Origin: a virus
Direction: 5' to 3' (one strand)
Virus record (IMG/VR): IMGVR_UViG_3300049597_000151
Span: 1-22,764 of that record
DNA: 22,764 bases
The position numbers and the translations under genes were made by a program. Each line of letters begins with the position of its first letter. Position 1 is the first letter of the stretch. The notes beneath the pieces were generated by a model. It searched no databases and was not told where the DNA came from. It saw only the letters and a program-made list of their open reading frames with translations. Positions 97 to 20,656 of the stretch are shown in pieces.

Positions 97-283
97 CAGG
101 GCAATCCTTCTAGCCGCAATGAAAGAGTTAGTGGAGCTGGCCCAATTTTACGGGGACACTTACGACAGAACTAAAAGCCCGTTGGCAATGCAACACCATA
201 AATACTTTACGTTTGAAGCCGCAAGACTTAGCCAACGTTTATTGTTAGTCCAAATAGAGATTGAGGAACAAGACCTTGACTGA
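77..283 (+). CDS. Small hypothetical protein
   Basis: A 68-residue frame starts at TTG 77, preceded by AAGG at 64-67 with nine bases between. An alternative start is ATG 119 (54 residues), which has only a distant, weak ribosome site. The body is helical and moderately acidic, with no cysteine motifs, no signal peptide and no membrane segment. It overlaps the following gene by 8 bases, typical of translationally coupled phage genes. I do not recognise a family. The start codon is uncertain; the reading frame itself is likely real because it fills the space between two other frames without a gap. Confidence 0.5.
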   Translation: MHPLLHSRAILLAAMKELVELAQFYGDTYDRTKSPLAMQHHKYFTFEAARLSQRLLLVQIEIEEQDLD

Positions 284-632
284 AATTAATTATCCCGCAG
301 ACGTAAACAGGGAACTAGCTTTGTTACGTTCCCAAGCTGAATTGGGCATAAACATTTTGGCAGACAAAGAACGGGAGCTAGTAAAGCTATCCTTGGAAGC
401 TGACCGAATTGAAGCACTCACCTATTTAGAAGCTGGCGGGTCAATCCCAGAACGTAACGCCGTGGCCAAGCTTAAAGCCTTAGACGCTAAAGAAGCGGCG
501 GAGCTTTGCAAGGTGGAAGTCAATCGCATAAAGCTAAAACTAAAGCACTTGTCTGAATCACAAATGAACATCCAGACACAATCTAAGATGATAGAACTAC
601 AATGGAGAACCGCGGGCATAAAAGAAAACTAA
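276..632 (+). CDS. Hypothetical helical (coiled-coil-like) protein
   Basis: This 118-residue protein starts at TTG 276, with GAGG at 263-266 as ribosome site; an in-frame TTG at 261 is the alternative. It is Leu/Ala/Glu/Lys rich with long helical stretches (a regular pattern of LRSQAELG, ADKERELVKLSLEADRIE and KLKALDAKEAAEL) separated by a Gly-Gly-Ser turn near residue 55. That layout suggests an antiparallel coiled coil. Proteins of this size and style sit beside recombination and single-strand-binding genes in many phages, but I see no diagnostic residue. It overlaps the next gene by one base (TAATG). Confidence 0.6.
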   Translation: MTEINYPADVNRELALLRSQAELGINILADKERELVKLSLEADRIEALTYLEAGGSIPERNAVAKLKALDAKEAAELCKVEVNRIKLKLKHLSESQMNIQTQSKMIELQWRTAGIKEN

Positions 633-856: not shown

Positions 857-1016
857 GAAAAAACCCGCTTACCTGAAGCCCTTAGAAAAAAGTGTTTTGG
901 AAAAAATCTTGAAAATTGAAAAAAAGCCAAAAAAATGGGAAAAAGCTCAAAAAGAAGAAAATTTGGCTAAAACCGTTTTTGGCCTTTCTAGTGGCCTTAT
1001 GTTTAGCGGGGTGTAG
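849..1016 (+). CDS. Small lysine-rich protein
   Basis: The ATG at 849 lies in ATGACTAA, overlapping the previous stop by 8 bases, an arrangement seen repeatedly in this genome. The 55-residue product is very rich in Lys and Glu (residues 1-37) and ends in a neutral segment (VFGLSSGLMFSGV). The high Lys content follows from the A-rich DNA, which grows steadily toward the non-coding A-tract block. Its last 100 bases are overlapped in the +1 frame by the lipoprotein-like frame described next; at most one of the two need be functional. No family recognised. Confidence 0.4.
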   Translation: MTKKKPAYLKPLEKSVLEKILKIEKKPKKWEKAQKEENLAKTVFGLSSGLMFSGV

Positions 1017-1101
1017 CCACGGTGTTTTTAGAAACCAGCTCCATCGAAGCCCTTTGGGAAAAATGATTTACCAGTTCAAAGCTAAAAAGAAAATAATTTA
1101 A
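916..1101 (+). CDS. Possible small lipoprotein (overlapping frame, doubtful)
   Basis: A 61-residue frame from TTG 916 reads as a lipoprotein precursor: a lysine-rich n-region, the hydrophobic run LKPFLAFLVALCLAGC ending in a lipobox LAGC (lipid-bearing Cys at residue 33), then a short basic tail. Such small phage lipoproteins can block superinfection in Gram-positive hosts, but that role is only a guess. Against it: no convincing ribosome site precedes TTG 916, the n-region may simply reflect A-rich DNA, and it overlaps the gene at 849-1016. Part of the coding stretch is the first copy of a direct repeat whose second copy (1470-1531) has stop codons just upstream. Confidence 0.3.
   Translation: MKKSQKNGKKLKKKKIWLKPFLAFLVALCLAGCSHGVFRNQLHRSPLGKMIYQFKAKKKII
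995..1055 (+). repeat. Imperfect direct repeat, left copy
   Basis: This segment matches 1470-1531 in the same orientation. Over 995-1034 versus 1470-1509, I count 30 of 40 identical positions without gaps; the match continues with small gaps to the shared GAAG..CCCTT. The two copies lie about 475 bp apart and bracket the A-tract block. Confidence 0.65.
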
Positions 1102-1124
1102 AAAATGCCAAAAATGTAAAAAAC
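1100..1124 (+). repeat. 25-bp exact direct repeat, copy 1
   Basis: This 25-base stretch (A6, TGCC, A5, TGT, A6, C) is repeated exactly at 1377-1401. It shows that the A-tract block contains real long-range duplication and not merely random A-rich sequence. Confidence 0.75.
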
Positions 1125-1376
1125 CCAAAAAAATCCAAAAATGTTAGAAATCCAAAAAAACCCAAAAAAACGGGAAAATGTCAAAAAATGGAAAAAAACT
1201 AGAAAAAGTGATTTTTTGAAAAAAAACTAAAAAAACTCAAAAATAGAAAAAAATGAAAAAAAGTCCAAAAAGTGAAAAAATGATAAAAAAACCAAAAAAG
1301 TGAAAAAACCTAAAAATTTAGAAAAAAGTGAAAAATCTTATTTTTTTGAAAAAAACCCAAAAACCTGAAAATTTAG

Positions 1377-1401
1377 AAAAAATGCCAAAAATGTAAAAAA
1401 C
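1377..1401 (+). repeat. 25-bp exact direct repeat, copy 2
   Basis: Identical to 1100-1124, 277 bp downstream, near the right end of the A-tract block. Confidence 0.75.
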
Positions 1402-1469
1402 GTAAAAAAATCAAGAAATGTAAAAAACTGAAGAATTTGAAGAAAAATGATTTTCCAACTAATTTTACC

Positions 1470-1531
1470 CCTTATTCTATGCGGGTTCTAGCCCCGTGGT
1501 ATTTAGAAAACCGTGCCACCTGAAGACCCTT
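1470..1531 (+). repeat. Imperfect direct repeat, right copy
   Basis: Partner of 995-1055. It contains a short hairpin GCGGG-TTCTAGC-CCCGT that resembles a tRNA T-arm by chance. Stops lie directly upstream in the frame that would match the lipoprotein-like protein, so this copy is non-coding. From here to 1609 I see only A-rich sequence and the ribosome site of the next gene. Confidence 0.65.
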
Positions 1532-1609
1532 CAAAAAACCACCCAACTGAATAGCCCTAGAAAAATAAATAAATAAAAAAAGCCCAAAACTGAAAAAAGG
1601 CCGAAAAAG

Positions 1610-1951
1610 ATGAAAAAACAAGCTTTTGATAAATTGCTAGAGCGGGATGGTTATTGTCTCCATTGCGGAGAGACCCAAGCCGTGGCACCTAACCACCGAA
1701 TCAATCGGGGAATGGGTGGAAGTAAAAAACTAGATAATTGGGCCAATCTAGTTATTCTTTGTTCATTACTAAACGGGCAGATTGAAGCCGATACACGTTG
1801 GGCGTCCATGGCCGAATCCTACGGCTGGAAACTAAGGCGCTACCAAGACCCGCTGGCGGAACCCGTCTTTGACGCAATCGCTGGGGTTTGGTATTTGCTA
1901 GATGATAACTTAGGCCGTAAGGTAGTAGACGGAAAGGGAAACAATGACTAA
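1610..1951 (+). CDS. HNH-type endonuclease-like protein
   Basis: This 113-residue protein starts at ATG 1610 behind AAAAGG with normal spacing. It shows Cys16-x2-Cys19 (GYCLHC), then Asn28-His29-Arg30, the GMGGSKKLDN loop with Asn43/Asn46, and LVILC around residues 47-51 followed by LLNGQ. This is the layout of HNH (His-Me finger) nucleases stabilised by a zinc knuckle. The second half (WASMAESYGWKL) is typical of the phage branch often seen with replication or modification genes. It is the first gene after the A-tract block and overlaps the next by 8 bases. The DNA target is unknown; roles range from free-standing homing nuclease to a packaging or restriction activity. Confidence 0.8.
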   Translation: MKKQAFDKLLERDGYCLHCGETQAVAPNHRINRGMGGSKKLDNWANLVILCSLLNGQIEADTRWASMAESYGWKLRRYQDPLAEPVFDAIAGVWYLLDDNLGRKVVDGKGNND

Positions 1952-3415: not shown

Positions 3416-4279
3416 ATGCCACTAATCCGCGGCCACCACTCATTTGACGACCACTTTACCCAGATACCTAACGCTTGGCTTCGGGACCCAAACTTATCCC
3501 TAGGCGCTAAAGGATTATTGGCCCAGTTGCTAAGTCATTCACCAGGTTGGGAAGTCTCCCAAGAATCACTTGCCAAAGCTAACAGAATGGGCAAGGACGC
3601 CATAAGAAAACTTATTGGGGAACTATTGGGGGCAGGCTACTTAAACCGCTCCACGGACCGCACAAGGCTGGATAAAGGGTATTTAGGTGGATACACTTAC
3701 ACAACCCAAGACCCTGACCCATCCATGGCGGGAAACCCTACGTTGGAAAACCCTACGTTGGATAATCCTACGTTGGATAATCCGCCACTTAAGAAGAACA
3801 TACTTAAAGAACAAAATACTAAAGAAGAAAATAATAAAGAAATTACGCAAAAAAGCTTTGAAGATGATTTTGGAAGATTTTGGACTATCTACCCAAGGCG
3901 GGCTGAAAAGGTAGCCGCTTATTCCGCTTTCTGCAAAGCCGTCCAGAAATACGGGCTAGAAGTGGTAATGACTGGCGTTGTGAATCTTGCAAATGACCCT
4001 AATCTTCCAGAAAAAACGTTTATCCCTTACCCAGCTAGTTGGCTAAATGCAGGGGGCTGGACTAATGACCCTTACCCAGAACGCAAGTTCACACCTGAAG
4101 AAAAGGCGGAAAGAATTGCCGCCGAAAGAAAAAAGAAAGCTTTGGCGGAACAGGAAAACACCAAACGGCTATTCGAAGAAATGGAAAAGTCGAAAGCTAA
4201 CGCGTCACCACCGCCAAAATGTAGCCACGGAAATTCGTTACTAAGTTGCTTACCGTGTCTACGCCAAATGTCTGACTAA
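3416..4279 (+). CDS. Replication initiator / replisome organiser-like protein
   Basis: I chose ATG 3416 (287 residues) over the TTG at 3353 because family members start near MPLIRG..FDDHFTQIPN and the TTG would overlap the FmdB gene. Residues 1-95 look like a winged-helix DNA-binding domain (LSLGAKGLLAQLLSHSPGW, then SQESLAKANRMGKDAIRKLIGEL). A low-complexity linker with NPTL(E/D) repeats follows, then a helical domain (FEDDFGRFWTIYPRR, YPASWLNAGGW) of the type that loads a helicase. The C-terminus has a possible zinc site, CSHG..SCLPC. The repeats are encoded by DNA iterons, as in the lambda O gene. It should recruit the replicative helicase, which is not in this window. Confidence 0.8.
   Translation: MPLIRGHHSFDDHFTQIPNAWLRDPNLSLGAKGLLAQLLSHSPGWEVSQESLAKANRMGKDAIRKLIGELLGAGYLNRSTDRTRLDKGYLGGYTYTTQDPDPSMAGNPTLENPTLDNPTLDNPPLKKNILKEQNTKEENNKEITQKSFEDDFGRFWTIYPRRAEKVAAYSAFCKAVQKYGLEVVMTGVVNLANDPNLPEKTFIPYPASWLNAGGWTNDPYPERKFTPEEKAERIAAERKKKALAEQENTKRLFEEMEKSKANASPPPKCSHGNSLLSCLPCLRQMSD
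3734..3778 (+). repeat. Three 15-bp iterons, candidate replication origin
   Basis: Three tandem 15-bp units run 3734-3748, 3749-3763 and 3764-3778, with a decayed fourth start at 3779. Each shares the core CCTACGTTGG, an imperfect dyad around ACGT. Directly downstream, 3791-3840 has 33 A and only 10 G/C among 50 bases. Iterons followed by an A+T-rich unwinding region inside the initiator gene is the architecture of the phage lambda origin. The units also encode the NPTL(E/D) peptide repeats, so they could instead be a coding linker. Confidence 0.6.
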
Positions 4280-6291: not shown

Positions 6292-6692
6292 TTCAGTTCA
6301 CCGAAGGGAAAAGAAAAAAAGTAAAAAGCACTTGTGAACGATGCGGCTATGAATGGATTCAGAACGAACGCCAGCTTTACAGGGAAACCGCGGAACTAAA
6401 ATTCTGCCGTAGTTGCAAAGCCACCGAATCTAAAAGCGTAATGCGTGACGGTTGGGTTTGTTCTCCCCACCGTGGCGAAGTGGACCTTGACACCATGACG
6501 CCACTAGACAGAAACGGCAAGCCCTACTTACCTGGAACCAGAATTTGCGGGATGCTTGACTGTATTACCAAGGCCCACATAATTACCGAAGCCCCAACAA
6601 ACAAAAAAGACGGTAAGGCGGTTTTGGCTGGAAAAGTAATCACCTATACCCAGTTTCTTGAAATCGAAAAGGCAAGAAAGGCCAAAAAATGA
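6288..6692 (+). CDS. Zinc-ribbon protein of unknown function
   Basis: The 134-residue protein starts at ATG 6288. Its N-terminal third is a zinc ribbon, CERCGYEW (CxxC near residues 16-19) paired with FCRSCK (near residues 40-43). A second Cys/His group follows (VCSPHRGEVDLDT and RICGMLDCITKAHI). The C-terminal 30 residues are a basic helix. It may bind DNA, RNA or a host protein; I cannot assign a family. It overlaps the Nmad1 gene by four bases. Confidence 0.7.
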   Translation: MIQFTEGKRKKVKSTCERCGYEWIQNERQLYRETAELKFCRSCKATESKSVMRDGWVCSPHRGEVDLDTMTPLDRNGKPYLPGTRICGMLDCITKAHIITEAPTNKKDGKAVLAGKVITYTQFLEIEKARKAKK

Positions 6693-9263: not shown

Positions 9264-9320
9264 CAAAGCTTAGATGGCCGCATGGCCAACAATAATCCCG
9301 CACGGGAAAGGAACAGCCGC

Positions 9321-9833
9321 ATGGCAGGAACAGGAAGGCCCGCAGGTCGCCCATCGAAACCGCTTGAAATAAAAAGAGCAATAGGCAACCCAGGCCAAAG
9401 ACCACTTCCAGATGCACCGCTACCAGGCCAAGGCTTGGAAGGTGTTTCAGGCGTTCCAACCCCGCCCGAATTGCAAGACGCAGGGCTAACGCTTTGGTAT
9501 CACGTTTGGACCGCAGGCCGTTCTTGGCTTGCTCCAGAATCAGACCGAACAATAATCACGCTTCTATGTCAAGCCCAAGACGAAGCTGAAGAAATTCGCT
9601 TGCAGATACAAAGCGGCGAGATTGAAAGATTTTACACAACCGCGAACGGACAGATGGTAACGCATCCAATCGTTACCCAGCTATCTAACTTACGAACCCA
9701 GATGACCGCTTGGCTTGCCGCAATCGGATTTTCACCCGCAGACCGTTCACGCTTAGGCTTGGCCGAAGTTCGCGTAAGGGATGAACTAGACGACTTACAA
9801 AGGCGACGCATTGAGCGTTCTGGAACCGCCTAG
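9321..9833 (+). CDS. terS: Terminase small subunit (P27-like)
   Basis: The small subunit binds the packaging start site and feeds DNA to the large subunit. I chose ATG 9321 (170 residues), which has AAAGGAA seven bases upstream; an in-frame ATG 9282 has no ribosome site. The N-terminus MAGTGRPAGRPSKP followed by NPGQRPLPDAPLP is typical of the P27 family (PF05119 type). The C-terminal part, QLSNLRTQMTAWLAAIGFSPADRSRLGL, is the family's signature helix and loop. It overlaps the large terminase by 23 bases. Confidence 0.88.
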   Translation: MAGTGRPAGRPSKPLEIKRAIGNPGQRPLPDAPLPGQGLEGVSGVPTPPELQDAGLTLWYHVWTAGRSWLAPESDRTIITLLCQAQDEAEEIRLQIQSGEIERFYTTANGQMVTHPIVTQLSNLRTQMTAWLAAIGFSPADRSRLGLAEVRVRDELDDLQRRRIERSGTA

Positions 9834-11328
9834 CCCAATTTGGGAACCAGCTTGGTCAGTTCCAACTTTGTCGGATTCGACCAACGGCCCGAACGTTACA
9901 GATTTTGCCGCAACATTACTAAAGGCTAGTCGCGGTTTTAAAGAAGGCCAGCCCTTAGAATTTACCGCTTGGCAATCTTGGCTTATGAAGCGTCTTTTTG
10001 AGCTTGACCCCGAAACTGGACTAATGCGTTATCGCAGGGCCGTTATAGGACTTCCCAGGAAGAACGGGAAAAGTTTATTGGGAACCGCTATTGCTTTGGA
10101 ACACTTAGTTTATGGACCAAGTGGGGCGCAAGTTTATAGCGCGGCTTCTGATAGAGCGCAGGCCAAAATCGTTTTCGGTGAAGCCCGCCAACAAGTTTTG
10201 AACAATCCAGCATTATCAAGAATAATTAAGGTTTACCGCGACGCCTTAGAAATCCCATCCAAGGGTGGAGTTTATAGGGCGCTTTCGGCGGACGCTATGA
10301 GGGCGCACGGTCTAGCACCGTCGCTAGTTGTAGCGGACGAATTACATGCTTGGCCGTCTTCCGCATCGAACACACGCGGGGATGAGCTTTGGGAAGCACT
10401 AACGCAAGGTTCTGCCGACAGGCCAGAATCCTTGGTTGTCGGAATCACTACCGCAGGCGGACACACCGATACATTGCTTGGCCGTTTATACGAACATGGC
10501 AAGCGAGTGGCCGCAGGTGAAATTGACGACCCGCAGTTTGGTTTCTGGTGGTGGGAAGCTCCACAAGACGCAGACCCCACGGACCCAGACGTTTGGAAAA
10601 AATCTAATCCGAATCTTGCAGAAGGCTTATTAGACGTGGGCGACTTCGAAGCCGCCATTGCTTCGGCAGGCTCGGCAGGCTTCGCAGGTTTCCAACGTTA
10701 CCGCTTGAACCAATGGGTCAGGCTTGCAGGTGAAGACTTTGTTAGCCCGCACTTCTGGGCCGAAGCTAAAAAAGAAACAAGTATTCCAATAGGCGCAACC
10801 GTTACCGCAGGTTTTGACGGTTCTGTATCAGGCGACGCAACTGGGATTGTTATTTGCGACATCGAAACTGGAACCCTAAAAGTCCACGCAGTTTGGGAAC
10901 CAGACCCAAGCAATCCAGATTGGACCGTAGACCGTGCAGACGTAAACGCGGCCATACAAAAACTTTTTGAAAACTACAACGTGAAAATGCTTTGGGCAGA
11001 CCCAAGCTTTTACGAACCAGACGTGCTAGAGTGGTCACGGCAGTATCGAAATAGAGTTGAAAGAATACCGCCAACAAATCACCGAATGGCCCCACTAGCC
11101 CAACAATTTATTGCGGACCTAGTAGCCAAAGACCTTGGACATGACGGGGATAAGCGATTGGAAAGACACGTTCTAAACGCAGTTGCGACAGAATCAGGGT
11201 CATTCAAAAAAGAGAAAAAAGCAAGCCCCCGTAAGATTGACTTACTAGCTTGTTCGGTTCTAGCGAACGGCGCTAGACACCAAATCAAAGACCGCAAGAC
11301 TACGAACCGAAGGGCCGTTATTTTATGA
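9811..11328 (+). CDS. terL: Terminase large subunit
   Basis: The 505-residue motor and nuclease packages DNA into the prohead. The start is TTG 9811 with AAAGG seven bases upstream. The ATPase part has Walker A GLPRKNGKS (residues 80-88) and Walker B LVVADELH (about 172-179, Asp176-Glu177). The RNase-H-like nuclease part has acidic residues Asp336 (GFDGS), Asp397 (WADPSF) and Asp477 (KIDLLA). Length is normal for the HK97-type family. It overlaps the portal by four bases. Confidence 0.95.
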   Translation: MSVLEPPSPIWEPAWSVPTLSDSTNGPNVTDFAATLLKASRGFKEGQPLEFTAWQSWLMKRLFELDPETGLMRYRRAVIGLPRKNGKSLLGTAIALEHLVYGPSGAQVYSAASDRAQAKIVFGEARQQVLNNPALSRIIKVYRDALEIPSKGGVYRALSADAMRAHGLAPSLVVADELHAWPSSASNTRGDELWEALTQGSADRPESLVVGITTAGGHTDTLLGRLYEHGKRVAAGEIDDPQFGFWWWEAPQDADPTDPDVWKKSNPNLAEGLLDVGDFEAAIASAGSAGFAGFQRYRLNQWVRLAGEDFVSPHFWAEAKKETSIPIGATVTAGFDGSVSGDATGIVICDIETGTLKVHAVWEPDPSNPDWTVDRADVNAAIQKLFENYNVKMLWADPSFYEPDVLEWSRQYRNRVERIPPTNHRMAPLAQQFIADLVAKDLGHDGDKRLERHVLNAVATESGSFKKEKKASPRKIDLLACSVLANGARHQIKDRKTTNRRAVIL

Positions 11329-12746
11329 GTTTAACGCCAGATGAATTAGACCTTGTAAATTATCTTTACCGCAAGCTTCAGCAACATGACCCTAAGAACT
11401 ATGTTCTACAGCGTTATTACGAAGGTAGAAACAAGCTGAAAGATTTGCGAATTTCTATTCCGCCACAACTAACCGCCGTTGAATCGGTTGTTGGTTGGGC
11501 TGGCACCGCCGTAGACGTTTTAGAAGAACGCTTAGACCTTGAAGGTTTTATTGACCCAGCGGACTTAGGCGTAAATGAAATTTTCCGCCAGAACGAAATG
11601 GACCTTGAAAGTTCATTAGGCCACAAAGACGCTTTGGTTTTCGGAACTGGATTCGTTACCGTTGGCCGTGGAATTGACGGCGAACCAGACCCGCTAATAA
11701 CAATCGAATCGCCAAAGAAAATGACGGCGCTATTTGACCTAAGAACCCGCAGACTAAAAGCGGCGTTACTTGTAAATAGAAACGAGACTGGTTCACCAGT
11801 TAGCGGAAGCCTTTATCTCCCAGACCAGACAATTTTCTTGGACTACGTTTCTAGGGCTTGGGTGGACGTGGACCGCGACATTCACAACCTTGGACGCGTC
11901 TTGGTTGCCCAACTTCCAAACAATCCACGTTCGGGAGACCCTTACGGTAGAACTGAAATCACTAGGGCAGTAAGAAGCTACACGGACAGCGCTATGCGAA
12001 CTTTGTTGGGCGCAGAAGTAGCACGTGAATTTTATTCAGCTCCCCAGCGTTACATCCTTGGCGCAACCGAAGACATTTTCTTAGATGCAGACGGTAAGCC
12101 ACTAAACCCGTGGTCAGTTTATCAAGGCCGTGTTCTGGGTATTCCTTACAACGAAGCCGAAAGCGTAATGCCACAAGTTGGTCAGTTCCAGGCTAACGAT
12201 ACCCGCCCTTACTTCGAACAAATCCGCGCCTACGCACAACTAATGGCGGCAGAAACAGCAATCCCAGCAAGCTACTTAGGTTTCCAAACAGACAACCCAG
12301 CAAGCGCAGATGCTATTCGCCAAATGGAAGCAAGACTTGTAAAACGTGCAGAACGTAGACAGCGCCAGTTCGGTAGAACTTGGTCTGAAGTTGCACGTCT
12401 AGCTTTGTTGGTTAGGGATGGTTCAATCCCAGAAGAAGCTGGAGAAATTCGCCCGATTTGGCGCGACGCTTCAACACCAACTAGAGCCGCCGCCGCAGAC
12501 GAAGCGGTTAAACTTATTTCGGCAGGTGTTTTGTTGCCCGATTCTGAAATAACTTACAATAGAATTGGCCTAAGCGAAACAGACAAGCAAGTTTTAAGAG
12601 CAGAAAAGAAATTAGCTTCCGCGACTAACCTAGTAGCTAACTTGGCGCAAGCAAGTCTTAACGCAGTCCAAAATCCAGTTGTAGCAGAACTAGCAAGCCG
12701 AAGAACAGAAAACGAAACGAACGTAGACAATGCCGCTAATAGCTAA
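11325..12746 (+). CDS. Portal protein (SPP1 gp6-like)
   Basis: This 473-residue protein should form the dodecameric ring at the capsid vertex through which DNA passes and to which the tail joins. It starts in ATGA with the terminase stop. Features fitting PF05133-type portals are the start LVNYLYRKLQQHDPKNYVLQRYYEG, the wing strand pattern PLITIESPKKMTALFDLRTR, and the C-terminal stem region YFEQIRAYAQLMAAETAIPASYLGF. The C-terminal 50 residues are polar and disordered-looking. It overlaps the next gene by 17 bases. Confidence 0.93.
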   Translation: MSLTPDELDLVNYLYRKLQQHDPKNYVLQRYYEGRNKLKDLRISIPPQLTAVESVVGWAGTAVDVLEERLDLEGFIDPADLGVNEIFRQNEMDLESSLGHKDALVFGTGFVTVGRGIDGEPDPLITIESPKKMTALFDLRTRRLKAALLVNRNETGSPVSGSLYLPDQTIFLDYVSRAWVDVDRDIHNLGRVLVAQLPNNPRSGDPYGRTEITRAVRSYTDSAMRTLLGAEVAREFYSAPQRYILGATEDIFLDADGKPLNPWSVYQGRVLGIPYNEAESVMPQVGQFQANDTRPYFEQIRAYAQLMAAETAIPASYLGFQTDNPASADAIRQMEARLVKRAERRQRQFGRTWSEVARLALLVRDGSIPEEAGEIRPIWRDASTPTRAAAADEAVKLISAGVLLPDSEITYNRIGLSETDKQVLRAEKKLASATNLVANLAQASLNAVQNPVVAELASRRTENETNVDNAANS

Positions 12747-13536
12747 ACGGCGGGCGCTTGACGAAACCACAACTTTAGCAATCGCAACCACCGTTGAAGT
12801 TACTAATCTTCTAAGGGATAGAACAATCCCTGAAATAGCTGGACAACTTAGGATTGCAATGCCAGCAATCACAACCCAGTTTGGTGAAGTTGCCGCAGTT
12901 GTTAGCGCTAACGATTATAACGTAGACCGTTCAAGGCTAGACCTTCCAACTGAATACGTTGCGATACCGCAAGCCAAACCAGTTGTAACGGCCACGCAAG
13001 CCGCAGTTGGTTTTGGGATTGCCCAGCTAACTAAAGAAGTTCCGTTTGAAACTTTTCAAAGCACTTTAGCTGGTTCGGTCCAACGTCTAGTAATGCAAGG
13101 CGATAGAGACACCATAGAATTTAACATTGTAACAGACCCAGACGGAACCAGTTACGAAAGAGTTCCAAGCCCAGGCGCTTGCGCTTTCTGTATGACAATG
13201 GCCGCGGTTGCTACAGACGGAACTAACATTCGTAAAGATTACTTTGATAAATACCACAATTTTTGCCGTTGCACTATCAGACCAATCTTTACTGGTCAAA
13301 GCCCAACGGAACTACCCGAATACAAACAGGCTAGGGATGCTTACACTTTAGCCAACAACCAACTTCTAAAAGAACAAAAAGAAGCAAGAAGACTTTTTGA
13401 CATAGAAAGAGAAGCCCAAGGATTACGAACTGGTGGAAGTAGAGCAACAACGGCTTTCCAAAAAGCGAATCCAGAACTATCGCTAACTACCGAAAACATT
13501 TTACGTAACGTTAGAAAGATAACTGGGCAAAAATAG
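12730..13536 (+). CDS. MuF-like minor head protein
   Basis: The 268-residue protein starts at ATG 12730 inside the portal's end. The region PSPGACAFCMTMAA followed by YHNFCRCTIRPIF (about residues 144-185) is the conserved Cys/His signature of Mu F-like head morphogenesis proteins of actinobacteriophages. These associate with the portal and may be ejected with DNA or assist capsid maturation. No separate head maturation protease lies between portal and capsid, so this protein or host enzymes might fill that role, or the capsid may mature uncleaved. The C-terminus is a basic helix (LLKEQKEARRLFDIEREAQG). Confidence 0.85.
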   Translation: MPLIAKRRALDETTTLAIATTVEVTNLLRDRTIPEIAGQLRIAMPAITTQFGEVAAVVSANDYNVDRSRLDLPTEYVAIPQAKPVVTATQAAVGFGIAQLTKEVPFETFQSTLAGSVQRLVMQGDRDTIEFNIVTDPDGTSYERVPSPGACAFCMTMAAVATDGTNIRKDYFDKYHNFCRCTIRPIFTGQSPTELPEYKQARDAYTLANNQLLKEQKEARRLFDIEREAQGLRTGGSRATTAFQKANPELSLTTENILRNVRKITGQK

Positions 13537-13539
13537 ATT

Positions 13540-13572
13540 TCTGGCACCGCGCCAGACACAGCCGCATGGCTG
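13540..13572. promoter_or_regulatory. Two tandem hairpins before the scaffold gene
   Basis: TCTGGC-ACCGC-GCCAGA (13540-13556) and CAGCC-GCAT-GGCTG (13559-13572) lie between the MuF-like stop and the scaffold ribosome site (AGGAG). No T-run follows. They are probably RNA processing or stabilising hairpins that set the 5' end of the scaffold-capsid message. Confidence 0.5.
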
Positions 13573-13597
13573 AAATCCTGCATAGGAGAAAAACGCA

Positions 13598-14080
13598 ATG
13601 AGCGAAGAAACAACAGAAACAACCGCGCCAACCGAAATAGTCGAAGACGCAGTAGAGCCGCAGGGCGAAGCAAGCGAAACCGATTGGAAGGCCGAAGCCC
13701 GCAAGTGGGAAAGTCGCGCTAAAGCCGCAAAGGTAGATAGCGAAGACGCCAACAAGTGGCGGGATTATGAGAAAAGCCTTAAACCAGTTCAAGAGCGTTT
13801 AGCAGAAGAATTGGCCCAAGCTAAGGCGGAAGCAATCGAATCTTCCACCAAACTTCTCAAGTATGAAATCGCAAGTCAAAGGGGAATCCCAGCGGACGCG
13901 ATTGAATTGCTAAATGGTCAGACACGCGAAGATTTAGAAACTTCGGCTGACAAACTGATGTCACTTATTGCGAATCAGTCAAAAACACCAACTAAAGCTG
14001 ACGTGAACCAAGGCAAACCAGATGGCGGCGGAACTACCACCGCTAACCAGTTTGCTAACGCACTAAGCGAATTACTATAA
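13598..14080 (+). CDS. Scaffolding protein
   Basis: This 160-residue protein should direct capsid assembly from the inside and leave before DNA packaging. ATG 13598 follows AGGAG. It has the usual scaffold make-up: an acidic disordered N-terminus (residues 1-28), a long charged coiled coil (about 29-95, KAEARKWESRAKAAK and ERLAEELAQAKAEA), and a short C-terminal helix (NQFANALSELL) likely to bind the capsid. Position directly before the capsid gene agrees. Confidence 0.88.
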   Translation: MSEETTETTAPTEIVEDAVEPQGEASETDWKAEARKWESRAKAAKVDSEDANKWRDYEKSLKPVQERLAEELAQAKAEAIESSTKLLKYEIASQRGIPADAIELLNGQTREDLETSADKLMSLIANQSKTPTKADVNQGKPDGGGTTTANQFANALSELL

Positions 14081-14098
14081 GAAAAGGAGTTTGCTAAA

Positions 14099-14947
14099 AT
14101 GGCAGACATTAATAGAGGTTCTGGAAGTATCGTTCTTCCAGCAGACGTATCAGGTGAGATTCTAGGAAAGGTTTTGGAGACTTCTGTCATCCAGAGCGCC
14201 GCCCGCAGAATTGACCTTCCAGGCCGCGGCACCGCAGTAAACATTGTTACTGGAGAGCCAAGCGCCGCATGGGTTGGAGAGACCGAATCAAAGCCAGTTT
14301 CTAACGGAACAGCCGCGACCAAGGTTCTACGCCCATACAAGTTGGCAGTAATCGAAACATTCTCTAACGAGTTCCGTCGCGACCTTCCAGCACTTTACAA
14401 CGCACTAGCTTCACGCCTACCAAACGCATTGGCTAAGAAGTTCGACACCACCGTATTCCACGGCACCAACCCAGGTTCCGACTTTGACAACCTATCTTCT
14501 GCAAGCGCTCACGTGCTTGACTATGACGGTATGGTTGCGGCATTGTCAGCCCTAGGCGCTTCAGGTTACGACATGAACGGAATCATTGTTTCCCCACAAG
14601 GAGAAGCAAAGCTTCTAGGCGAGAAGGACCTTCAGGACCGTCCGCTATTCATTAGCAACCTACAGGCTGAAGGTGGAATTGGTTCCGTATTGGGCCGTCC
14701 AGTATTCAAGTCCAAGGCGGCTTACCTAGACACCACAACCGACGTTCTAGGATTCGCAGGAGACTGGAGCCAGGCCGTATGGGGTCAGGTAAACGACGTA
14801 ACTGTTAAGATTAGCGACCAAGCTACTCTAACCGTTGGAGAAGACACCGTTAACCTATTCCAGCAAAACATGTTCGCAGTATTGGCAGAAATCGAAGTTG
14901 GTTTCCGTATTAGCGACATTGCAGCTTTCAAGAAGCTAACCGCCTAA
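14099..14947 (+). CDS. Major capsid protein (HK97 fold)
   Basis: The 282-residue shell protein starts at ATG 14099 with a strong AAAGGAG site. The segments AAWVGETESKPVS, RPYKLAVIETFSNEFRRDLPALYNALASRLPNALAKKFDTTVFHG (split across the E-loop and spine helix) and VLAEIEVGFRISDIAAFKKL match the HK97-fold capsids of actinobacterial siphoviruses. The lack of a long N-terminal delta domain agrees with a separate scaffold gene. Codons look more uniform (many TTC, GAC, AAC) than in neighbours, as in highly expressed genes. A hairpin terminator follows. Confidence 0.93.
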   Translation: MADINRGSGSIVLPADVSGEILGKVLETSVIQSAARRIDLPGRGTAVNIVTGEPSAAWVGETESKPVSNGTAATKVLRPYKLAVIETFSNEFRRDLPALYNALASRLPNALAKKFDTTVFHGTNPGSDFDNLSSASAHVLDYDGMVAALSALGASGYDMNGIIVSPQGEAKLLGEKDLQDRPLFISNLQAEGGIGSVLGRPVFKSKAAYLDTTTDVLGFAGDWSQAVWGQVNDVTVKISDQATLTVGEDTVNLFQQNMFAVLAEIEVGFRISDIAAFKKLTA

Positions 14948-14960
14948 CATTAGGCAACCC

Positions 14961-15006
14961 CGCTAGGGGCTGGTTTCGACTGGCCCCTAGCGCCCTAAAA
15001 TTTTTT
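14961..15006 (+). terminator. Intrinsic terminator after the capsid gene
   Basis: CGCTAGGGGC (14961-14970) and GCCCCTAGCG (14983-14992) form a perfect 10-bp stem with a 12-base loop, followed eight bases later by T6 (15001-15006). It probably stops part of the transcription, so that capsid mRNA exceeds that of the joining genes. Confidence 0.7.
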
Positions 15007-15021
15007 AGCTGAAAGGCAAGT

Positions 15022-15483
15022 ATGAGCTGGACCACGCCGCAAGATGTTTTAGACCGCTGGGTTGGTAGTGATAAGCCAACGGATGATGATTTGATTCAAG
15101 CGCTAATTGATGACGCTGAAGCCGTAATACTTTCCGAATACCCAAAAATTCAAGACCGCATTGATGACGAAGAACTTTCTGTAAATACCGTTATCATGGT
15201 TGTTTCAAGAATGGTTTCCCGCCTACTTAGAAACCCCGAAAACTTAACTTACTGGCAACAACAAACAGGCCCATTTGGTCAAGCTAGAAACTACGGTTCT
15301 GGCAACGGCGACATTTGGTTAACCGAAAACGAACTATCTTTATTGGCCCCGAAATCACGCGGCAAAGCTTACGAAGTAAACCAAGGATACGATGCACAAT
15401 CTCCATCCGTGGTAGACGACTTTAGGCTTGGACTTGCTAACGAATTCGAATGGCTGGAGATTAGCGACAATGAGCTTTATTAG
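15022..15483 (+). CDS. Head-tail adaptor (Gp15/Gp19-like)
   Basis: The 153-residue protein starts at ATG 15022 behind AAAGG. It is mainly helical at the N-terminus (DVLDRWVGS, IQALIDDAEAVILSEYP) and has the segment QQQTGPFGQARNYGSGNGDIWLTENELSLL typical of the adaptor proteins (PF09355 type) that attach under the portal and extend the DNA channel. First in a run of four joining genes. It overlaps the next by 14 bases. Confidence 0.82.
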   Translation: MSWTTPQDVLDRWVGSDKPTDDDLIQALIDDAEAVILSEYPKIQDRIDDEELSVNTVIMVVSRMVSRLLRNPENLTYWQQQTGPFGQARNYGSGNGDIWLTENELSLLAPKSRGKAYEVNQGYDAQSPSVVDDFRLGLANEFEWLEISDNELY

Positions 15484-15808
15484 AGGCGGGGAAACAATAA
15501 CAATCAGACGGCGTTCTGAAACCGCCGTGGATGACTACGGAAACCCAACTTATTCGATTACCACAATAACCGTAAAAGACGCGCTAGTTGCGTTTGGTTC
15601 TACAGACGAACCAGTAGACGCAAGCCGCGACCCGATAGACAGCAAGATAACCGTTTACCTTCCTAACGGAACAGCCGTTCAAGACGGCGACACTTTTATT
15701 ATTCGCAATACTAATTGGGTTCAAGACGGCCAGTATCAAAACTGGATTAGTCCTTTTACCAGCTTTGAAGCTGGGACTGTAGTTCAACTAAGGAAACGCG
15801 TTGGCTAA
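15470..15808 (+). CDS. Head-tail stopper-like protein
   Basis: I placed the start at ATG 15470, preceded by GGAG, giving 112 residues; a longer frame from 15428 lies inside the adaptor gene. The protein is nearly all beta (GETITIRRRSE, TITTITVKDALVAF, SKITVYLPNGTAV, DTFIIRNTNWVQDG), as in stopper proteins that close the portal channel after packaging. Gene order (adaptor, stopper, joining protein, terminator) supports the call. Confidence 0.7.
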   Translation: MSFIRGGETITIRRRSETAVDDYGNPTYSITTITVKDALVAFGSTDEPVDASRDPIDSKITVYLPNGTAVQDGDTFIIRNTNWVQDGQYQNWISPFTSFEAGTVVQLRKRVG

Positions 15809-16061
15809 AGCTAGAATACTGGTCAAACTTGATTCGGACGAAATTAGAAAACTTCTAAAATCTAATGACGTGGGCGACTATTTATTAGACCTAGGAAAAC
15901 AAGTTGCCGATAAAGCTGGCCCAGATTACATTGCAAGCCTAGACAAAGAATCAAGAAAAACTAGGGTTGTAGTAAACGTAGGAGACCCAAGACCAGGGGC
16001 AAAATTTATAGAAATGCGAACTGGAAGATTAGCTAGAGCGCTAGGAGAAACCAAAAAATGA
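15801..16061 (+). CDS. Tail-to-head joining protein (HK97 gp10-like)
   Basis: The 86-residue protein begins at TTG 15801, overlapping the previous stop by 8 bases. It has a helix with DVGDYLLDLGKQVADKAGPDYIA, then a strand (RKTRVVVNVGD) and the Arg-rich end EMRTGRLARALG, a pattern of small HK97 gp10-like proteins. Short for the family. It overlaps the tail terminator gene by four bases. Confidence 0.6.
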   Translation: MAKARILVKLDSDEIRKLLKSNDVGDYLLDLGKQVADKAGPDYIASLDKESRKTRVVVNVGDPRPGAKFIEMRTGRLARALGETKK

Positions 16062-16468
16062 TGCCAGCCGTTATTTTTCCAGACGTTGAACGCGTGTTAG
16101 TTGCGGCAATAAAAGCCGAACTACTAACAAGGTCAGAAACCTACGCGCAAAATGTTTTTGTCGCAACCAAAAAACCTGCCGCAGATAAAACCCCTTACCC
16201 TTCCAGAATCATAACAATTCGTTCCGACGGTGGACCAAAACTTGACTGGGTAAGAAAGTCCGAAAGGGTTGCTATTACAATTTGGGCAAATACTTATTCG
16301 GATGCGTCGGACCTTGCCAGACTAATTGAAGCGCTTTCAATTACACTTACTAGCGATTCAATCAAACTTAGCCAAGTAATTCTTTCACCAATTCGAATTG
16401 ACGAAGCTGGACCGCAAGAATGTCGCTACATGACATTGGAACTAATAACCAAAGGTTCCACATTATAG
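16058..16468 (+). CDS. Tail terminator-like protein
   Basis: The 136-residue protein starts at ATG 16058 (or the adjacent ATG 16061). The alternating pattern of helix (DVERVLVAAIKAELLTRS), strands (RIITIRSDGG, SERVAITIWANT), helix (DASDLARLIEALSITL) and strand (CRYMTLELITKG) is that of terminators that cap the tail tube and join it to the head. Location before the major tail protein agrees. Confidence 0.75.
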   Translation: MMPAVIFPDVERVLVAAIKAELLTRSETYAQNVFVATKKPAADKTPYPSRIITIRSDGGPKLDWVRKSERVAITIWANTYSDASDLARLIEALSITLTSDSIKLSQVILSPIRIDEAGPQECRYMTLELITKGSTL

Positions 16469-16469
16469 A

Positions 16470-16521
16470 TTTCCGCGTAGCGGAAAACCACAACCCAAAT
16501 TGGGTTAAACCTTTCGAAAGG
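16470..16521. promoter_or_regulatory. Three consecutive inverted repeats before the major tail gene
   Basis: TTTCCGC-GTA-GCGGAAA (16470-16486), AACCCAA-A-TTGGGTT (16492-16506) and the 12-bp palindrome CCTTTCGAAAGG (16510-16521) follow one another in the 61-base gap. The last carries the ribosome site GAAAGG. They could protect the 5' end of the tail message or fold to control its translation. Confidence 0.65.
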
Positions 16522-16529
16522 AAAACAAA

Positions 16530-17057
16530 ATGGCACTTATCGCCGAAAACGTGGTAGTAGGAATAACAGGGGAAGTCTATGTTGGACCAACCACCGCTAC
16601 CGCCCCAACATCCAGCACTTCAACCCTTACAGGATTTAGCTCATTGGGCTATGTATCCGCAGACGGCGTTGAATTTGCGTCGGAAAAATCCACCAACCAG
16701 ATTAGAGCTTGGCAGAACGCTGACCTAGTCCGCGAAGTTATCACCGAAGGAACTGTAACTTATTCTTTCGCACTACTAGAGACAACCGAAGAAACCCTAG
16801 AACTTTACTTCGGCGCTCCATTGCTAGACGGCAAGATTGAGCTTAACCCAGTAAGCACGGGTGGCCGCAAGTCTTTCGTTATTGACATTGTAGACGGCGC
16901 AAAGGTAATTCGCCACTACGTTCCAGCGGGGGAGATTCTTTCTGTAGAAGCCCAGACAATCCAGAATGGTGAAGCCGTTTCTTACGGTGTAACAATGACC
17001 GCTTACGCTTCCGAAGGTCGCGTAGCTGACATTTTCCATTCTGAATTTGAAGCTTAA
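16530..17057 (+). CDS. Major tail protein
   Basis: The 175-residue tube subunit starts at ATG 16530 behind AAAGGAAAAC. It has the usual order: N-terminal strand with Thr/Ser-rich arm (VGPTTATAPTSSTST), GYVSADGVEFASEKSTNQIRAWQNADLVREV, which is very typical of siphovirus tube proteins, then strands to TYSFALLETTEETLELYFG. Even codon use and flanking hairpins fit high expression. Confidence 0.9.
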   Translation: MALIAENVVVGITGEVYVGPTTATAPTSSTSTLTGFSSLGYVSADGVEFASEKSTNQIRAWQNADLVREVITEGTVTYSFALLETTEETLELYFGAPLLDGKIELNPVSTGGRKSFVIDIVDGAKVIRHYVPAGEILSVEAQTIQNGEAVSYGVTMTAYASEGRVADIFHSEFEA

Positions 17058-17067
17058 ATAATAAATT

Positions 17068-17104
17068 CCTACGGGGTGGACAAAGCGGTTATCCGCCCCG
17101 TAGG
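17068..17104 (+). terminator. Long hairpin after the major tail gene
   Basis: CCTACGGGGTGGA (17068-17080) pairs with TCCGCCCCGTAGG (17092-17104): 13 pairs with one G-U, loop of 11 bases. Only TTCTTC follows, not a clean T-run, so it may act as an RNA-stabilising 3' hairpin or partial terminator. Confidence 0.6.
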
Positions 17105-17153
17105 TTCTTCAAAACCCAACCGCTAACTTACCGCTAAAAGAAAGAGCAAAAAA

Positions 17154-17414
17154 ATGACCGCGAAACTTTACACGTTTGAACACAAAAAAACCACTTATGA
17201 AATCCCGTTCTTTTCGGAATTGCCTATGGGCGCAATTCGTAAGGCTAGAAAAGCTACAGACGACATTGACAAAGCTTTCATAATCATAGAAGAAATTTTA
17301 GGCGAAAACGCCCCAGCGCTTGAAGCGCTTGATTCCATGAAGGCCGCGGAATTTCAAAAATTCCTAGAAGGCTGGACCCAAGGCGCACCGTTGGGGGAAT
17401 CCTTAGGGTCTTAG
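17154..17414 (+). CDS. Tail assembly chaperone, short form
   Basis: The 86-residue protein starts at ATG 17154. Tail assembly chaperones bind the tape measure protein and help polymerise tail tube around it. Length, acidic-helical content (DDIDKAFIIIEEILGE, LDSMKAAEFQKFLEGW) and position before the tape measure match the G protein of lambda-like systems. Most ribosomes should end here at TAG 17412-17414; a fraction shifts frame at 17393-17399. Confidence 0.88.
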   Translation: MTAKLYTFEHKKTTYEIPFFSELPMGAIRKARKATDDIDKAFIIIEEILGENAPALEALDSMKAAEFQKFLEGWTQGAPLGESLGS

Positions 17415-17776
17415 AACTTCTAAATTCCCACCCAAGGGAATTAGTTTCTGATTTTAGGACCCATTTTCAACTAAGTGTTTTTGAGCTTGGAAAATCTATT
17501 TCATGGCTAGAAGGAATTTATTTAATTTCTTCACTAATGGCAAACCCCAATTCACAATTACAAGCCGTTATTAATAATTGGAAACACCCAGTTTCTTATG
17601 AATGGATTTTACTTAGTCACATTTTTGACCTATTAGCTTCCGCGAATAGCAAGAAAAAACCAAAGCCCTACCCTACCCCGTGGCCCAATCCAAACACAAG
17701 CAGATTGAAGCCAAGTCAAGCACAAAACCGCAATGACGTGCTAGAACAACTTAGACGTATGAACCCAAAGGAATAA
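17154..17776 (+). CDS. Tail assembly chaperone, frameshifted long form
   Basis: Ribosomes that slip at 17393-17399 continue in the -1 frame for 125 more residues, about 207 in all. The added part starts ILRVLELLNSHPREL and contains FELGKSISWLEGIYLISSL, HPVSYEWILLSHIFDLLA and a Pro/Lys-rich linker; these are the usual features of the T domain of chaperones. That the homologous sequence starts before the first ATG of this frame (17537) shows the shift is used. Stop TAA 17774-17776 is one base before the tape measure start. Confidence 0.82.
17393..17399 (+). promoter_or_regulatory. -1 frameshift slippery site GGGGGAA
   Basis: In the chaperone frame the codons are GGG (17394-17396) and GAA (17397-17399), preceded by G. 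Slipping back one base keeps GGG paired and moves GAA to GGA. The downstream -1 frame is open to 17776, as expected for a G/GT-type programmed shift. Confidence 0.72.
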
Positions 17777-17777
17777 C

Positions 17778-19799: not shown

Positions 19800-20656
19800 A
19801 CATAAGTTTTAGCATCGTTGGAAACAACAACGACGAAATTTCATTAGACGGTCCAGACTACGTTTTGGAAACTGGCGCAACTGGTTTTGGTATACCCCAG
19901 CCCGAAGTTCGCATTGACCCAAGCGCTGGAAATGGTGGCAAGTTCAAATTCCTAAAGCGTGGCGTTAGGGTTCTGGACTTGCCCATTGCTATCTTAAGCA
20001 ACAACCAAGAAAACTTAGAACCTAAGCTTAGAAGACTTGCTAGGGCAATGGCTTCAGACTTTACACTAAAAGCGACTTACGCAACTGGTGAAATCTGGTC
20101 TATCGTTCTGTATTTAGACGGCGGGGCGGAAACCACATTTGGCGAAGACGCCAACAAGTATTTTGCTAAATGGGTTCTTAACGCTAGAGCGCCACAACCT
20201 TTTTGGGTAAACGCTACAGCCACAACCTTTAGCGTGCAGGCCGAAGAAGTAGAACGTGGTCTTCTAGGTGTTTCAGTTGGCCAGCGTTCACTTAGCCAAT
20301 TACAAGTTAGTTCTGGGCAAGCCCTTGGAACTATTCTGGTAACTAACGCAGGCGACGTTGAAACCCCAGTTTTCTGGCGTATAGACGGCCCAGCAAGCTC
20401 CGTAGAAGTTGCCTTTAATGGAACTGGTTTTAGCTACGAAGATGATTTGCTAACTGGTGAATCTATTTTGATAAACACCGAACTTGGAACCGTGCTAACG
20501 CAGACGGGCGCTAACGCTTACAGCGGACTTGGCCCAGCCCCGAAGTTATTTGACTTGCCCGCTGGAAACAGTATTATTAACATTACCGCTACAGGCGCAG
20601 ACGAAAACACAAAGATTAGCGGTTCATTCAACCTAAGAAGGGAAGTCCTTCACTAA
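19793..20656 (+). CDS. Distal tail (Dit-like) protein
   Basis: The 287-residue protein begins at TTG 19793, overlapping the tape measure stop. The N-terminal half (SLDGPDYVLETGATGFGIP, GGKFKFLKRGVRVLDLPIAIL, then ARAMASDFTLKATYATGE) is the pattern of the siphovirus tail-tip family. Dit forms a hexamer that joins tube to baseplate. The start lacks a strong ribosome site, so coupling to the upstream gene is likely. Confidence 0.8.
   Translation: MVNISFSIVGNNNDEISLDGPDYVLETGATGFGIPQPEVRIDPSAGNGGKFKFLKRGVRVLDLPIAILSNNQENLEPKLRRLARAMASDFTLKATYATGEIWSIVLYLDGGAETTFGEDANKYFAKWVLNARAPQPFWVNATATTFSVQAEEVERGLLGVSVGQRSLSQLQVSSGQALGTILVTNAGDVETPVFWRIDGPASSVEVAFNGTGFSYEDDLLTGESILINTELGTVLTQTGANAYSGLGPAPKLFDLPAGNSIINITATGADENTKISGSFNLRREVLH

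What the first reader, a model, noticed from the sequence alone, without database searches (positions are those of the whole stretch)
1084..1440. A-tract array with about 9.2-bp spacing, possibly a new origin or partition element
Twenty-nine A- or T-tracts between 1103 and 1361, separated by 2-4 bases, form a non-coding block of unusual order. An exact 25-bp repeat (1100-1124, 1377-1401) rules out mere random A-richness. The 9.2-bp spacing differs from the 10.5-bp helical repeat, so the DNA may coil rather than bend flat. Candidate roles: replication origin, plasmid-like partition site, packaging signal, or a long A-rich RNA.
Basis: partly seen in the sequence, partly recalled or inferred. Interest (0 to 1): 0.8.

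Follow-up and report, generated by a model that had tools for sequence, protein, structure and literature searches.

The report
Non-helical 9.23-bp A-tract array, actinophages
A phage of actinobacteria carries a non-coding block of about 36 short runs of A spaced with sub-base-pair regularity every 9.23 bases, a spacing that does not match the DNA helix; a related phage carries the same ruler elsewhere in its genome, which suggests a track for a chain-forming DNA-binding protein rather than a replication origin.

Summary
The array is real, and larger and more ordered than stated. Tract centres at 1100-1427 fit a 9.229±0.007 bp lattice (rms 0.46 bp), far outside shuffled controls. It sits in a 753-bp insert (857-1609), built of three diverged box-plus-array units, between two genes that abut or overlap in 39 of 45 relatives. 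So it is accessory, not a conserved origin. The likely origin is inside the replication gene, where 15-bp iterons plus an AT-rich stretch recur at the same place in most relatives. A pattern scan found two more such arrays in a related phage (L183/L250), at other positions and with unrelated spacers; the better one gives 9.233±0.006 bp. A wedge model predicts a corkscrew without global bend, unlike 10.5-bp A-tract arrays. Only "A core, non-A spacer" is conserved, almost always on one strand. This best fits a track for a head-to-tail winged-helix filament of BldC/Xis type (9 bp per protomer, AT minor groove, left-handed, about 8 per turn). The L183 phage encodes such a protein; the incomplete window contig does not, so this is inference (about 0.35). 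The main rival is a decayed, slippage-grown minisatellite: simple 9/10-bp A-tract repeats occur in unrelated bacteria.

The parts
857..1609 (+). Lineage-specific non-coding insert between the CSCGA gene (602/632-856) and the HNH gene (1610-1951)
   Evidence: 753-bp gap here; the gap is 15 bp or less in 39 of 45 relatives, usually a 4-8 bp overlap
1100..1427 (+). Main A-tract array, 34 A-tracts and 2 T-tracts on a 9.229 bp lattice
   Evidence: Fourier and lattice fit
1100..1124 (+). First copy of the exact 25-bp repeat AAAAAATGCCAAAAATGTAAAAAAC
1377..1401 (+). Second copy of the exact 25-bp repeat, 277 bp = 30 lattice steps away
1212..1217 (+). T6 tract at lattice position 12
1341..1347 (+). 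T7 tract at lattice position 26; same local sequence as 1212 at a distance of 130 bp
886..972 (+). Small upstream A-tract array (9 tracts, about 9.2-9.5 bp)
1561..1618 (+). Small downstream A-tract array (6 tracts) running into the HNH start codon at 1610
861..898 (+). Partial box A
   Evidence: score 35 with box B, shuffle maximum 27
985..1075 (+). Box B; overlaps ORF 916-1101 with a lipobox-like LVALCLAGC (LPAM_1 below cut-off)
   Evidence: score 56 with box C, shuffle maximum 32; extended 941-1096 against 1406-1580 score 79, shuffle maximum 37
1463..1545 (+). Box C, diverged copy of box B
3732..3845 (+). Likely real origin: 15-bp iterons (3737-3783) and AT-rich stretch (3787-3841) inside the replication gene 3416-4279

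Best explanation
The array is an accessory, directional track for a DNA-binding protein that assembles as a rigid head-to-tail filament along DNA, one protomer per A-tract, reading the narrow minor groove of each A-tract and the non-A break after it. It most likely controls transcription of the early operon in which it lies. The protein is probably of the small winged-helix BldC/excisionase (HTH_17) type, encoded by the phage or the host. Shown: the lattice, its phase-locking, its recurrence with the same period in a related phage, lack of base preference in the spacers, strand polarity, accessory position, lack of predicted global bend. Inferred: that a protein reads it, which protein, and that the output is transcriptional control.
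For: Two arrays with unrelated spacers in two phage species give 9.229±0.007 and 9.233±0.006 bp; a third (L183b/L250) gives 9.22-9.29. Phases in the two best arrays stay locked better than in a random mix of 9- and 10-bp units (P = 0.003 and 0.0008, low-pass residual) or random 27/28-bp triplets (P = 0.025 and 0.012). 30 of 34 and 30 of 37 units are distinct while the spacing holds. The lattice logo shows only an A core of 5-6 and A-depleted spacers without base preference, as expected for minor-groove readout. Polarity is nearly strict, as expected for a head-to-tail reader. BldC protomers bind 9-bp direct repeats head to tail, with the wing in the AT-rich minor groove, by indirect readout, forming long filaments (PMC5859096). 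9 x 35.1 degrees per bp gives -44 degrees per protomer, about 8.2 per left-handed turn; RdfS has 8 per left-handed turn (PMC11963761); the array has -39 to -43 degrees per step. Of 20 phage records searched, only the L183 phage has an HTH_17 protein over the cut-off (E 1.7e-13); its best PDB match is Pukovnik Xis 4j2n (E 2.5e-6). The L183a array fills the intergenic gap up to a start codon and the window's third array runs into the HNH start.
Against: No HTH_17 or MerR_1 protein is in the window contig, though the contig is a fragment (22.8 kb; relatives are mostly 30-35 kb). One HTH_17 carrier among 20 is weak association. Other excisionases use 10-11 bp spacing (PMC7498355). The BldC-specific C at +9 is not seen in the spacers. 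The third array is not phase-locked. L183 was found with a 9-bp-step pattern, so agreement near 9 is partly selected, although agreement to 0.01 bp is not.
Confidence: 0.35

Rival explanations
1. A non-functional minisatellite: an A-rich 27/28-bp (3-tract) unit grew by unequal recombination and slippage inside a tandemly duplicated box, then decayed; the lattice is a memory of the duplications.
For: Three tandem box-plus-array units. Spacer identity is raised at lags 27, 28, 130, 157 and 277, all multiples of the lattice. Simple 9/10-bp A-tract repeats occur in unrelated MAGs (L265, L296, L300, L319, L295; L272 is semi-degenerate with 9.195 bp). The block is accessory and its position varies. 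Against 27/28-bp triplets alone the phase-lock is only modest (P 0.08-0.12 by rms, 0.01-0.03 by low-pass residual).
Against: Most units are distinct, yet A-runs, the most slippage-prone sequence, have not drifted out of phase; spacers are depleted of A; the same 9.23 value recurs in a second species at another site.
Confidence: 0.33
2. A landing zone for a host xenogeneic silencer (Lsr2/H-NS type) that nucleates on AT-rich DNA.
For: About 73% AT in a 46% GC genome; minor-groove-type signature.
Against: No Lsr2 in 10 phage records (host not known). Such proteins are not expected to need a strand polarity or a sub-bp lattice (general knowledge).
Confidence: 0.12
3. An A-rich unstructured 5' leader RNA that helps translation or transcript stability of the gene just downstream.
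For: A is on the coding strand in all arrays; L183a and the window's third array run directly into start codons; the RNA has no special fold (z 0.14).
Against: Gives no reason for a 9.23-base lattice or for 330 bases of it.
Confidence: 0.1
4. Replication origin, partition or packaging site.
For: Lies in the replication module, 2-3 kb from the replication gene.
Against: Absent in relatives with the same replication module; iterons plus AT-rich stretch are inside the replication gene in most relatives; the position differs in L183; predicted not to bend.
Confidence: 0.05
5. Assembly artefact.
For: Low-complexity DNA in a metagenome contig.
Against: The sister array L183b/L250 was assembled independently from two metagenomes with no indel in 4850 bp; flanking synteny is intact.
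Confidence: 0.03

Closest known systems
BldC operator filaments (Streptomyces smeA-sffA, whiI; PMC5859096)
   Same: 9-bp direct repeats, AT-rich minor groove plus variable spacer, directional, variable repeat number, indirect readout
   Different: 2-4 repeats in the described sites against about 36; a C at +9 there, no spacer base preference here; no BldC-like gene in the window contig
Excisionase/RDF filaments (lambda and Pukovnik Xis, 186 Apl, P2 Cox, RdfS; PMC7498355, PMC11963761)
   Same: Small wHTH proteins, head-to-tail, cooperative, relaxed specificity; RdfS and Cox are left-handed, RdfS with 8 per turn; the L183 phage encodes a Xis-like protein
   Different: Operators of the studied RDFs are spaced about one helical turn (10-11 bp) and number up to 7; no att site or integrase seen here
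Phased A-tract (intrinsically curved) DNA
   Same: Arrays of short A-runs with short spacers
   Different: Period 9.23 instead of about 10.5 bp; predicted not globally curved. True 10.5-bp arrays were found in other viral contigs as a contrast
Bacterial A-tract minisatellites (9/10-bp simple repeats)
   Same: Similar mean spacing, non-coding
   Different: Those are mostly near-identical units with blocks of one length; here nearly every unit differs while phase is kept

Membership tests
BldC/Xis-type filament operator | Direct repeats of about 9 bp with an AT-rich core, same orientation | tested here: met
   Lattice 9.229 bp; 34 of 36 tracts on one strand
BldC/Xis-type filament operator | C-G pair 4 bp after the AT core (BldC AATTXXXX(C)) | tested here: not met
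   No base preference in spacer positions
BldC/Xis-type filament operator | Cognate HTH_17 protein in the same genome | tested here: inconclusive
   Present in the L183 phage; absent from the partial window contig; host not known
BldC/Xis-type filament operator | Cooperative protein binding | not testable with these tools
   Needs footprinting or gel shift
Intrinsically curved phased A-tract DNA | Tract spacing at the helical repeat (10-11 bp) | tested here: not met
   9.23 bp
Intrinsically curved phased A-tract DNA | Predicted global curvature | tested here: not met
   End/contour 0.84, against 0.37-0.56 for 10.5-bp arrays
Phage replication origin | Conserved position next to or in the initiator gene with iterons | tested here: not met
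   Array absent in relatives; iterons are inside the replication gene
Simple tandem repeat / minisatellite | Near-identical head-to-tail units | tested here: not met
   30 of 34 units distinct; TRF finds only 61-85% matching periods of 9, 18-19 and 27-28
Protein-coding sequence | Open frame through the array, period a multiple of 3 | tested here: not met
   No ORF of 50 aa or more through it; period 9.23, not 9.0
Known structured RNA | Rfam match or unusual fold | tested here: not met
   No Rfam hit; fold z 0.14

The most novel reading that the evidence does not exclude
The DNA itself encodes a rigid molecular ruler with a non-integer, non-helical step of 9.23 bp: a selected positioning track for a long left-handed protein filament on phage DNA, conserved only as a lattice of A-cores while its sequence and its place in the genome change freely.
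Probability: 0.3. Interest if true: 0.78.

Novelty: new variant of a known kind. Interest (0 to 1): 0.52.

Why it matters
Periodic A-tracts are normally explained by curvature at 10-11 bp, and phages as a group are reported to lack strong A-tract periodicity (PMC3431218). A phase-locked lattice at 9.23 bp shared by two phages but not by sequence would point to a regulatory or structural code read by a polymerising protein. It would turn the question of what BldC/Xis-like filaments do on long natural tracks into a direct binding experiment.

Tried and rejected
Curved-DNA element: rejected by the wedge-model path. New origin: rejected by relatives and by iterons in the replication gene. Structured RNA: no Rfam hit, fold z 0.14. 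Coding repeat: frame broken, period not 9.0; several scan hits (L134, L170, L236) read as collagen-like coding repeats and were set aside. Target-site or junction duplication at the insert ends (GATGA..AAAAAAC..GCTT at 846-870 and 1605-1625): score 21, under the shuffle maximum of 27. Box B/C homologues in fetched loci: none convincing. Direct relatives of the 123-aa upstream ORF by sequence scan: none by that scan, but relatives were found through neighbours. My first permutation test of the lattice (0 of 10000) was too generous because tract-edge jitter inflates the shuffled walk; the stricter simulation gives P of about 0.001-0.02 for each of the two best arrays. Drawing relatives of the window with the genome search is not possible for a virus record.

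Full report
OBSERVATION. The block exists and is strongly non-random. The A-indicator spectrum of 1084-1445 has a single sharp peak at 9.2 bp with power 17.4; Markov sequences of order 1-3 and permutations of runs and gaps give about 2-3 (0 of 1000 each). Tract centres from 1100 to 1427 fit a lattice of 9.229±0.007 bp with rms residual 0.46 bp over 36 positions. A stricter simulation, in which 9- and 10-bp units are mixed at random and edge jitter is matched to the data, gives P = 0.003 for the low-pass residual; random 27/28-bp triplets give P = 0.025. So the array is not only periodic but keeps phase. Lattice-aligned composition shows an A core of 5-6 positions and A-depleted spacers without base preference; all but two tracts are A on the + strand.

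SETTING. The window is a virus contig of 22,764 bases, a siphovirus-like phage: terminase, portal, capsid and tail genes are read from the ORFs at 9282-22635 (own reading), and PHROGs matches identify HNH, methyltransferase, replication-initiation and RusA proteins. Relatives include Pontimonas phage phiPsal1 and many IMG/VR contigs. In relatives the gene C_261 (261-632), the small CSCGA gene (632-856) and the HNH gene (1610-1951) are packed: 39 of 45 have a gap of 15 bp or less, mostly a 4-8 bp overlap. In the window the gap is 753 bp. The insert is made of three diverged tandem units, each a box of about 75-115 bp followed by an A-tract array: box A and 886-972, box B and 1084-1427, box C and 1561-1618. 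Units 941-1096 and 1406-1580 align with score 79, shuffle maximum 37. Within the main array, spacer identity is raised at lags of 27, 28, 130, 157 and 277, so segmental duplication took part in its growth.

THE SAME RULER ELSEWHERE. Its array L183a (37 tracts, 6303-6645, minus strand) gives 9.233±0.006 bp with rms 0.42 and is phase-locked (P 0.0008). It fills the gap between two small genes and ends at a start codon. A second array, L183b, also present in the independently assembled contig L250, lies upstream of an operon that begins with a predicted exonuclease (own reading of ORF 12216-13115) and gives 9.22-9.29 bp depending on the fit, not phase-locked. Between L183 and L250 there are 45 substitutions and no indels in 4850 bp, one substitution inside the array. 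Spacer sequences of the three arrays do not match. Two stricter 7-tract lattice patterns over the whole viral collection found window-like arrays only in these two contigs, besides a 9.5-bp A/T-rich repeat (L253), a short 10-bp one (L251) and two A-rich contigs. A control pattern at 10.5 bp found 31 contigs, of which about ten hold classical phased arrays at 10.55-10.65 bp. In 84,980 prokaryote genomes the 9.23 pattern hit 70 stretches, mostly simple 9/10-bp A-tract repeats or A-rich coding DNA; L272 is the most similar (9.195 bp, semi-repetitive, not phase-locked); none is titled as a Microbacteriaceae genome.

WHAT IT IS NOT. It does not look like the origin. The replication genes of most relatives compared have 15-bp direct repeats followed by an AT-rich 60-mer at the same place inside the gene, as in lambda O; the window has CCTACGTTGGATAAT repeats at 3737-3783 and an AT-rich stretch at 3787-3841. 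It is not classical bent DNA: in a dinucleotide wedge model (Bolshoy parameters, quoted from memory) the array has end-to-end/contour 0.84 with a mean helical repeat of 10.35 bp, that is a left-handed coil of about 85 bp per turn without net bend, whereas 10.5-bp arrays give 0.37-0.56 and the same array re-phased to 10.4 bp gives 0.20. It is not coding and not a structured RNA.

MECHANISM. A lattice that keeps a non-integer, non-helical step while its spacers change, with a fixed strand polarity and no base preference outside the A core, looks like the imprint of a rigid, directional protein polymer that reads the minor groove. The closest known polymer is the BldC/Xis class. BldC protomers sit head to tail on 9-bp direct repeats with the wing in the AT-rich narrow minor groove and form extended filaments by indirect readout (PMC5859096). 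With its reported twist of 35.1 degrees per bp, 9 bp give -44 degrees per protomer, about 8 per left-handed turn. RdfS filaments are left-handed with 8 protomers per turn (PMC11963761). The array implies -39 to -43 degrees per step. The L183 phage carries an HTH_17 protein of 56 aa between the RusA gene and its first array (E 1.7e-13; best PDB match Pukovnik Xis); no other of 20 phage records passes the cut-off. The window contig has none, but it is a fragment, and hosts may supply BldC, which is reported in many actinomycetes (PMC5859096). I put about 0.35 on this. The nearest rival, at about 0.33, is a neutral minisatellite whose lattice is inherited from 27/28-bp duplications; the data reject it only moderately and the finding that unrelated bacteria hold A-tract repeats of similar spacing keeps it alive.

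NOVELTY. Periodic A-tract DNA is a known kind, but a phase-locked, non-helical 9.23-bp lattice shared by two phages at different positions is not something I found described in eight literature searches (an open-access library only). I therefore call it a new variant of a known kind.

Noticed in passing
window 3737-3841: 15-bp tandem repeats (CCTACGTTGGATAAT) and an adjacent AT-rich stretch inside the replication gene, at the same position in most relatives although the repeat sequence differs: a lambda-O-like origin inside the initiator gene.
   Followed up: partly
L085 10276, L088 10246, L089 10231, L091 10216, L103 10156, L120 10291 (and other relatives): Directly after the RusA gene relatives carry a palindrome CGAAC-N4-GTTCG, repeats TAACGATTTGGTAACATT, then 4-6 A-tracts at about 10 bp just upstream of an extended -10 (TGTGNTANNNT): a conserved promoter with a short helical A-tract array.
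   Followed up: no
L330 2281, L338 2296, L341 3136, L342 2416, L350 12961, L354 6946, L327 7591: Long, degenerate A-tract arrays at 10.55-10.65 bp in other viral contigs, predicted to be strongly curved; several share flanking sequence.
   Followed up: partly
L213 3220, L214 4720, L247 240: Near-perfect 9-bp tandem repeat AAAACGTCA (about 20 copies) in related viral contigs; exact period 9.0 and uniform units, so a simple minisatellite.
   Followed up: no
L283 3560-3900, L297 3250-3560, L292 5480-5732: 56-63% GC deltaproteobacterial MAGs with short non-coding A-tract arrays (AAAAAAGGG/GGGG/GCG spacers) of about 9.1-9.4 bp.
   Followed up: partly
window 916-1101: Small ORF with a lipobox-like segment (LVALCLAGC) whose lysine-rich N-terminus is encoded by the first A-tract array; box C looks like a decayed second copy.
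   Followed up: partly
window 261-632 and 602-856: Two small conserved genes of unknown function (no Pfam or PHROGs hit) that are almost always adjacent to the HNH gene in this phage family.
   Followed up: no
L250 1803-2147 (minus strand): WhiB-like reading frame just upstream of the second A-tract array of the L183/L250 phage.
   Followed up: no
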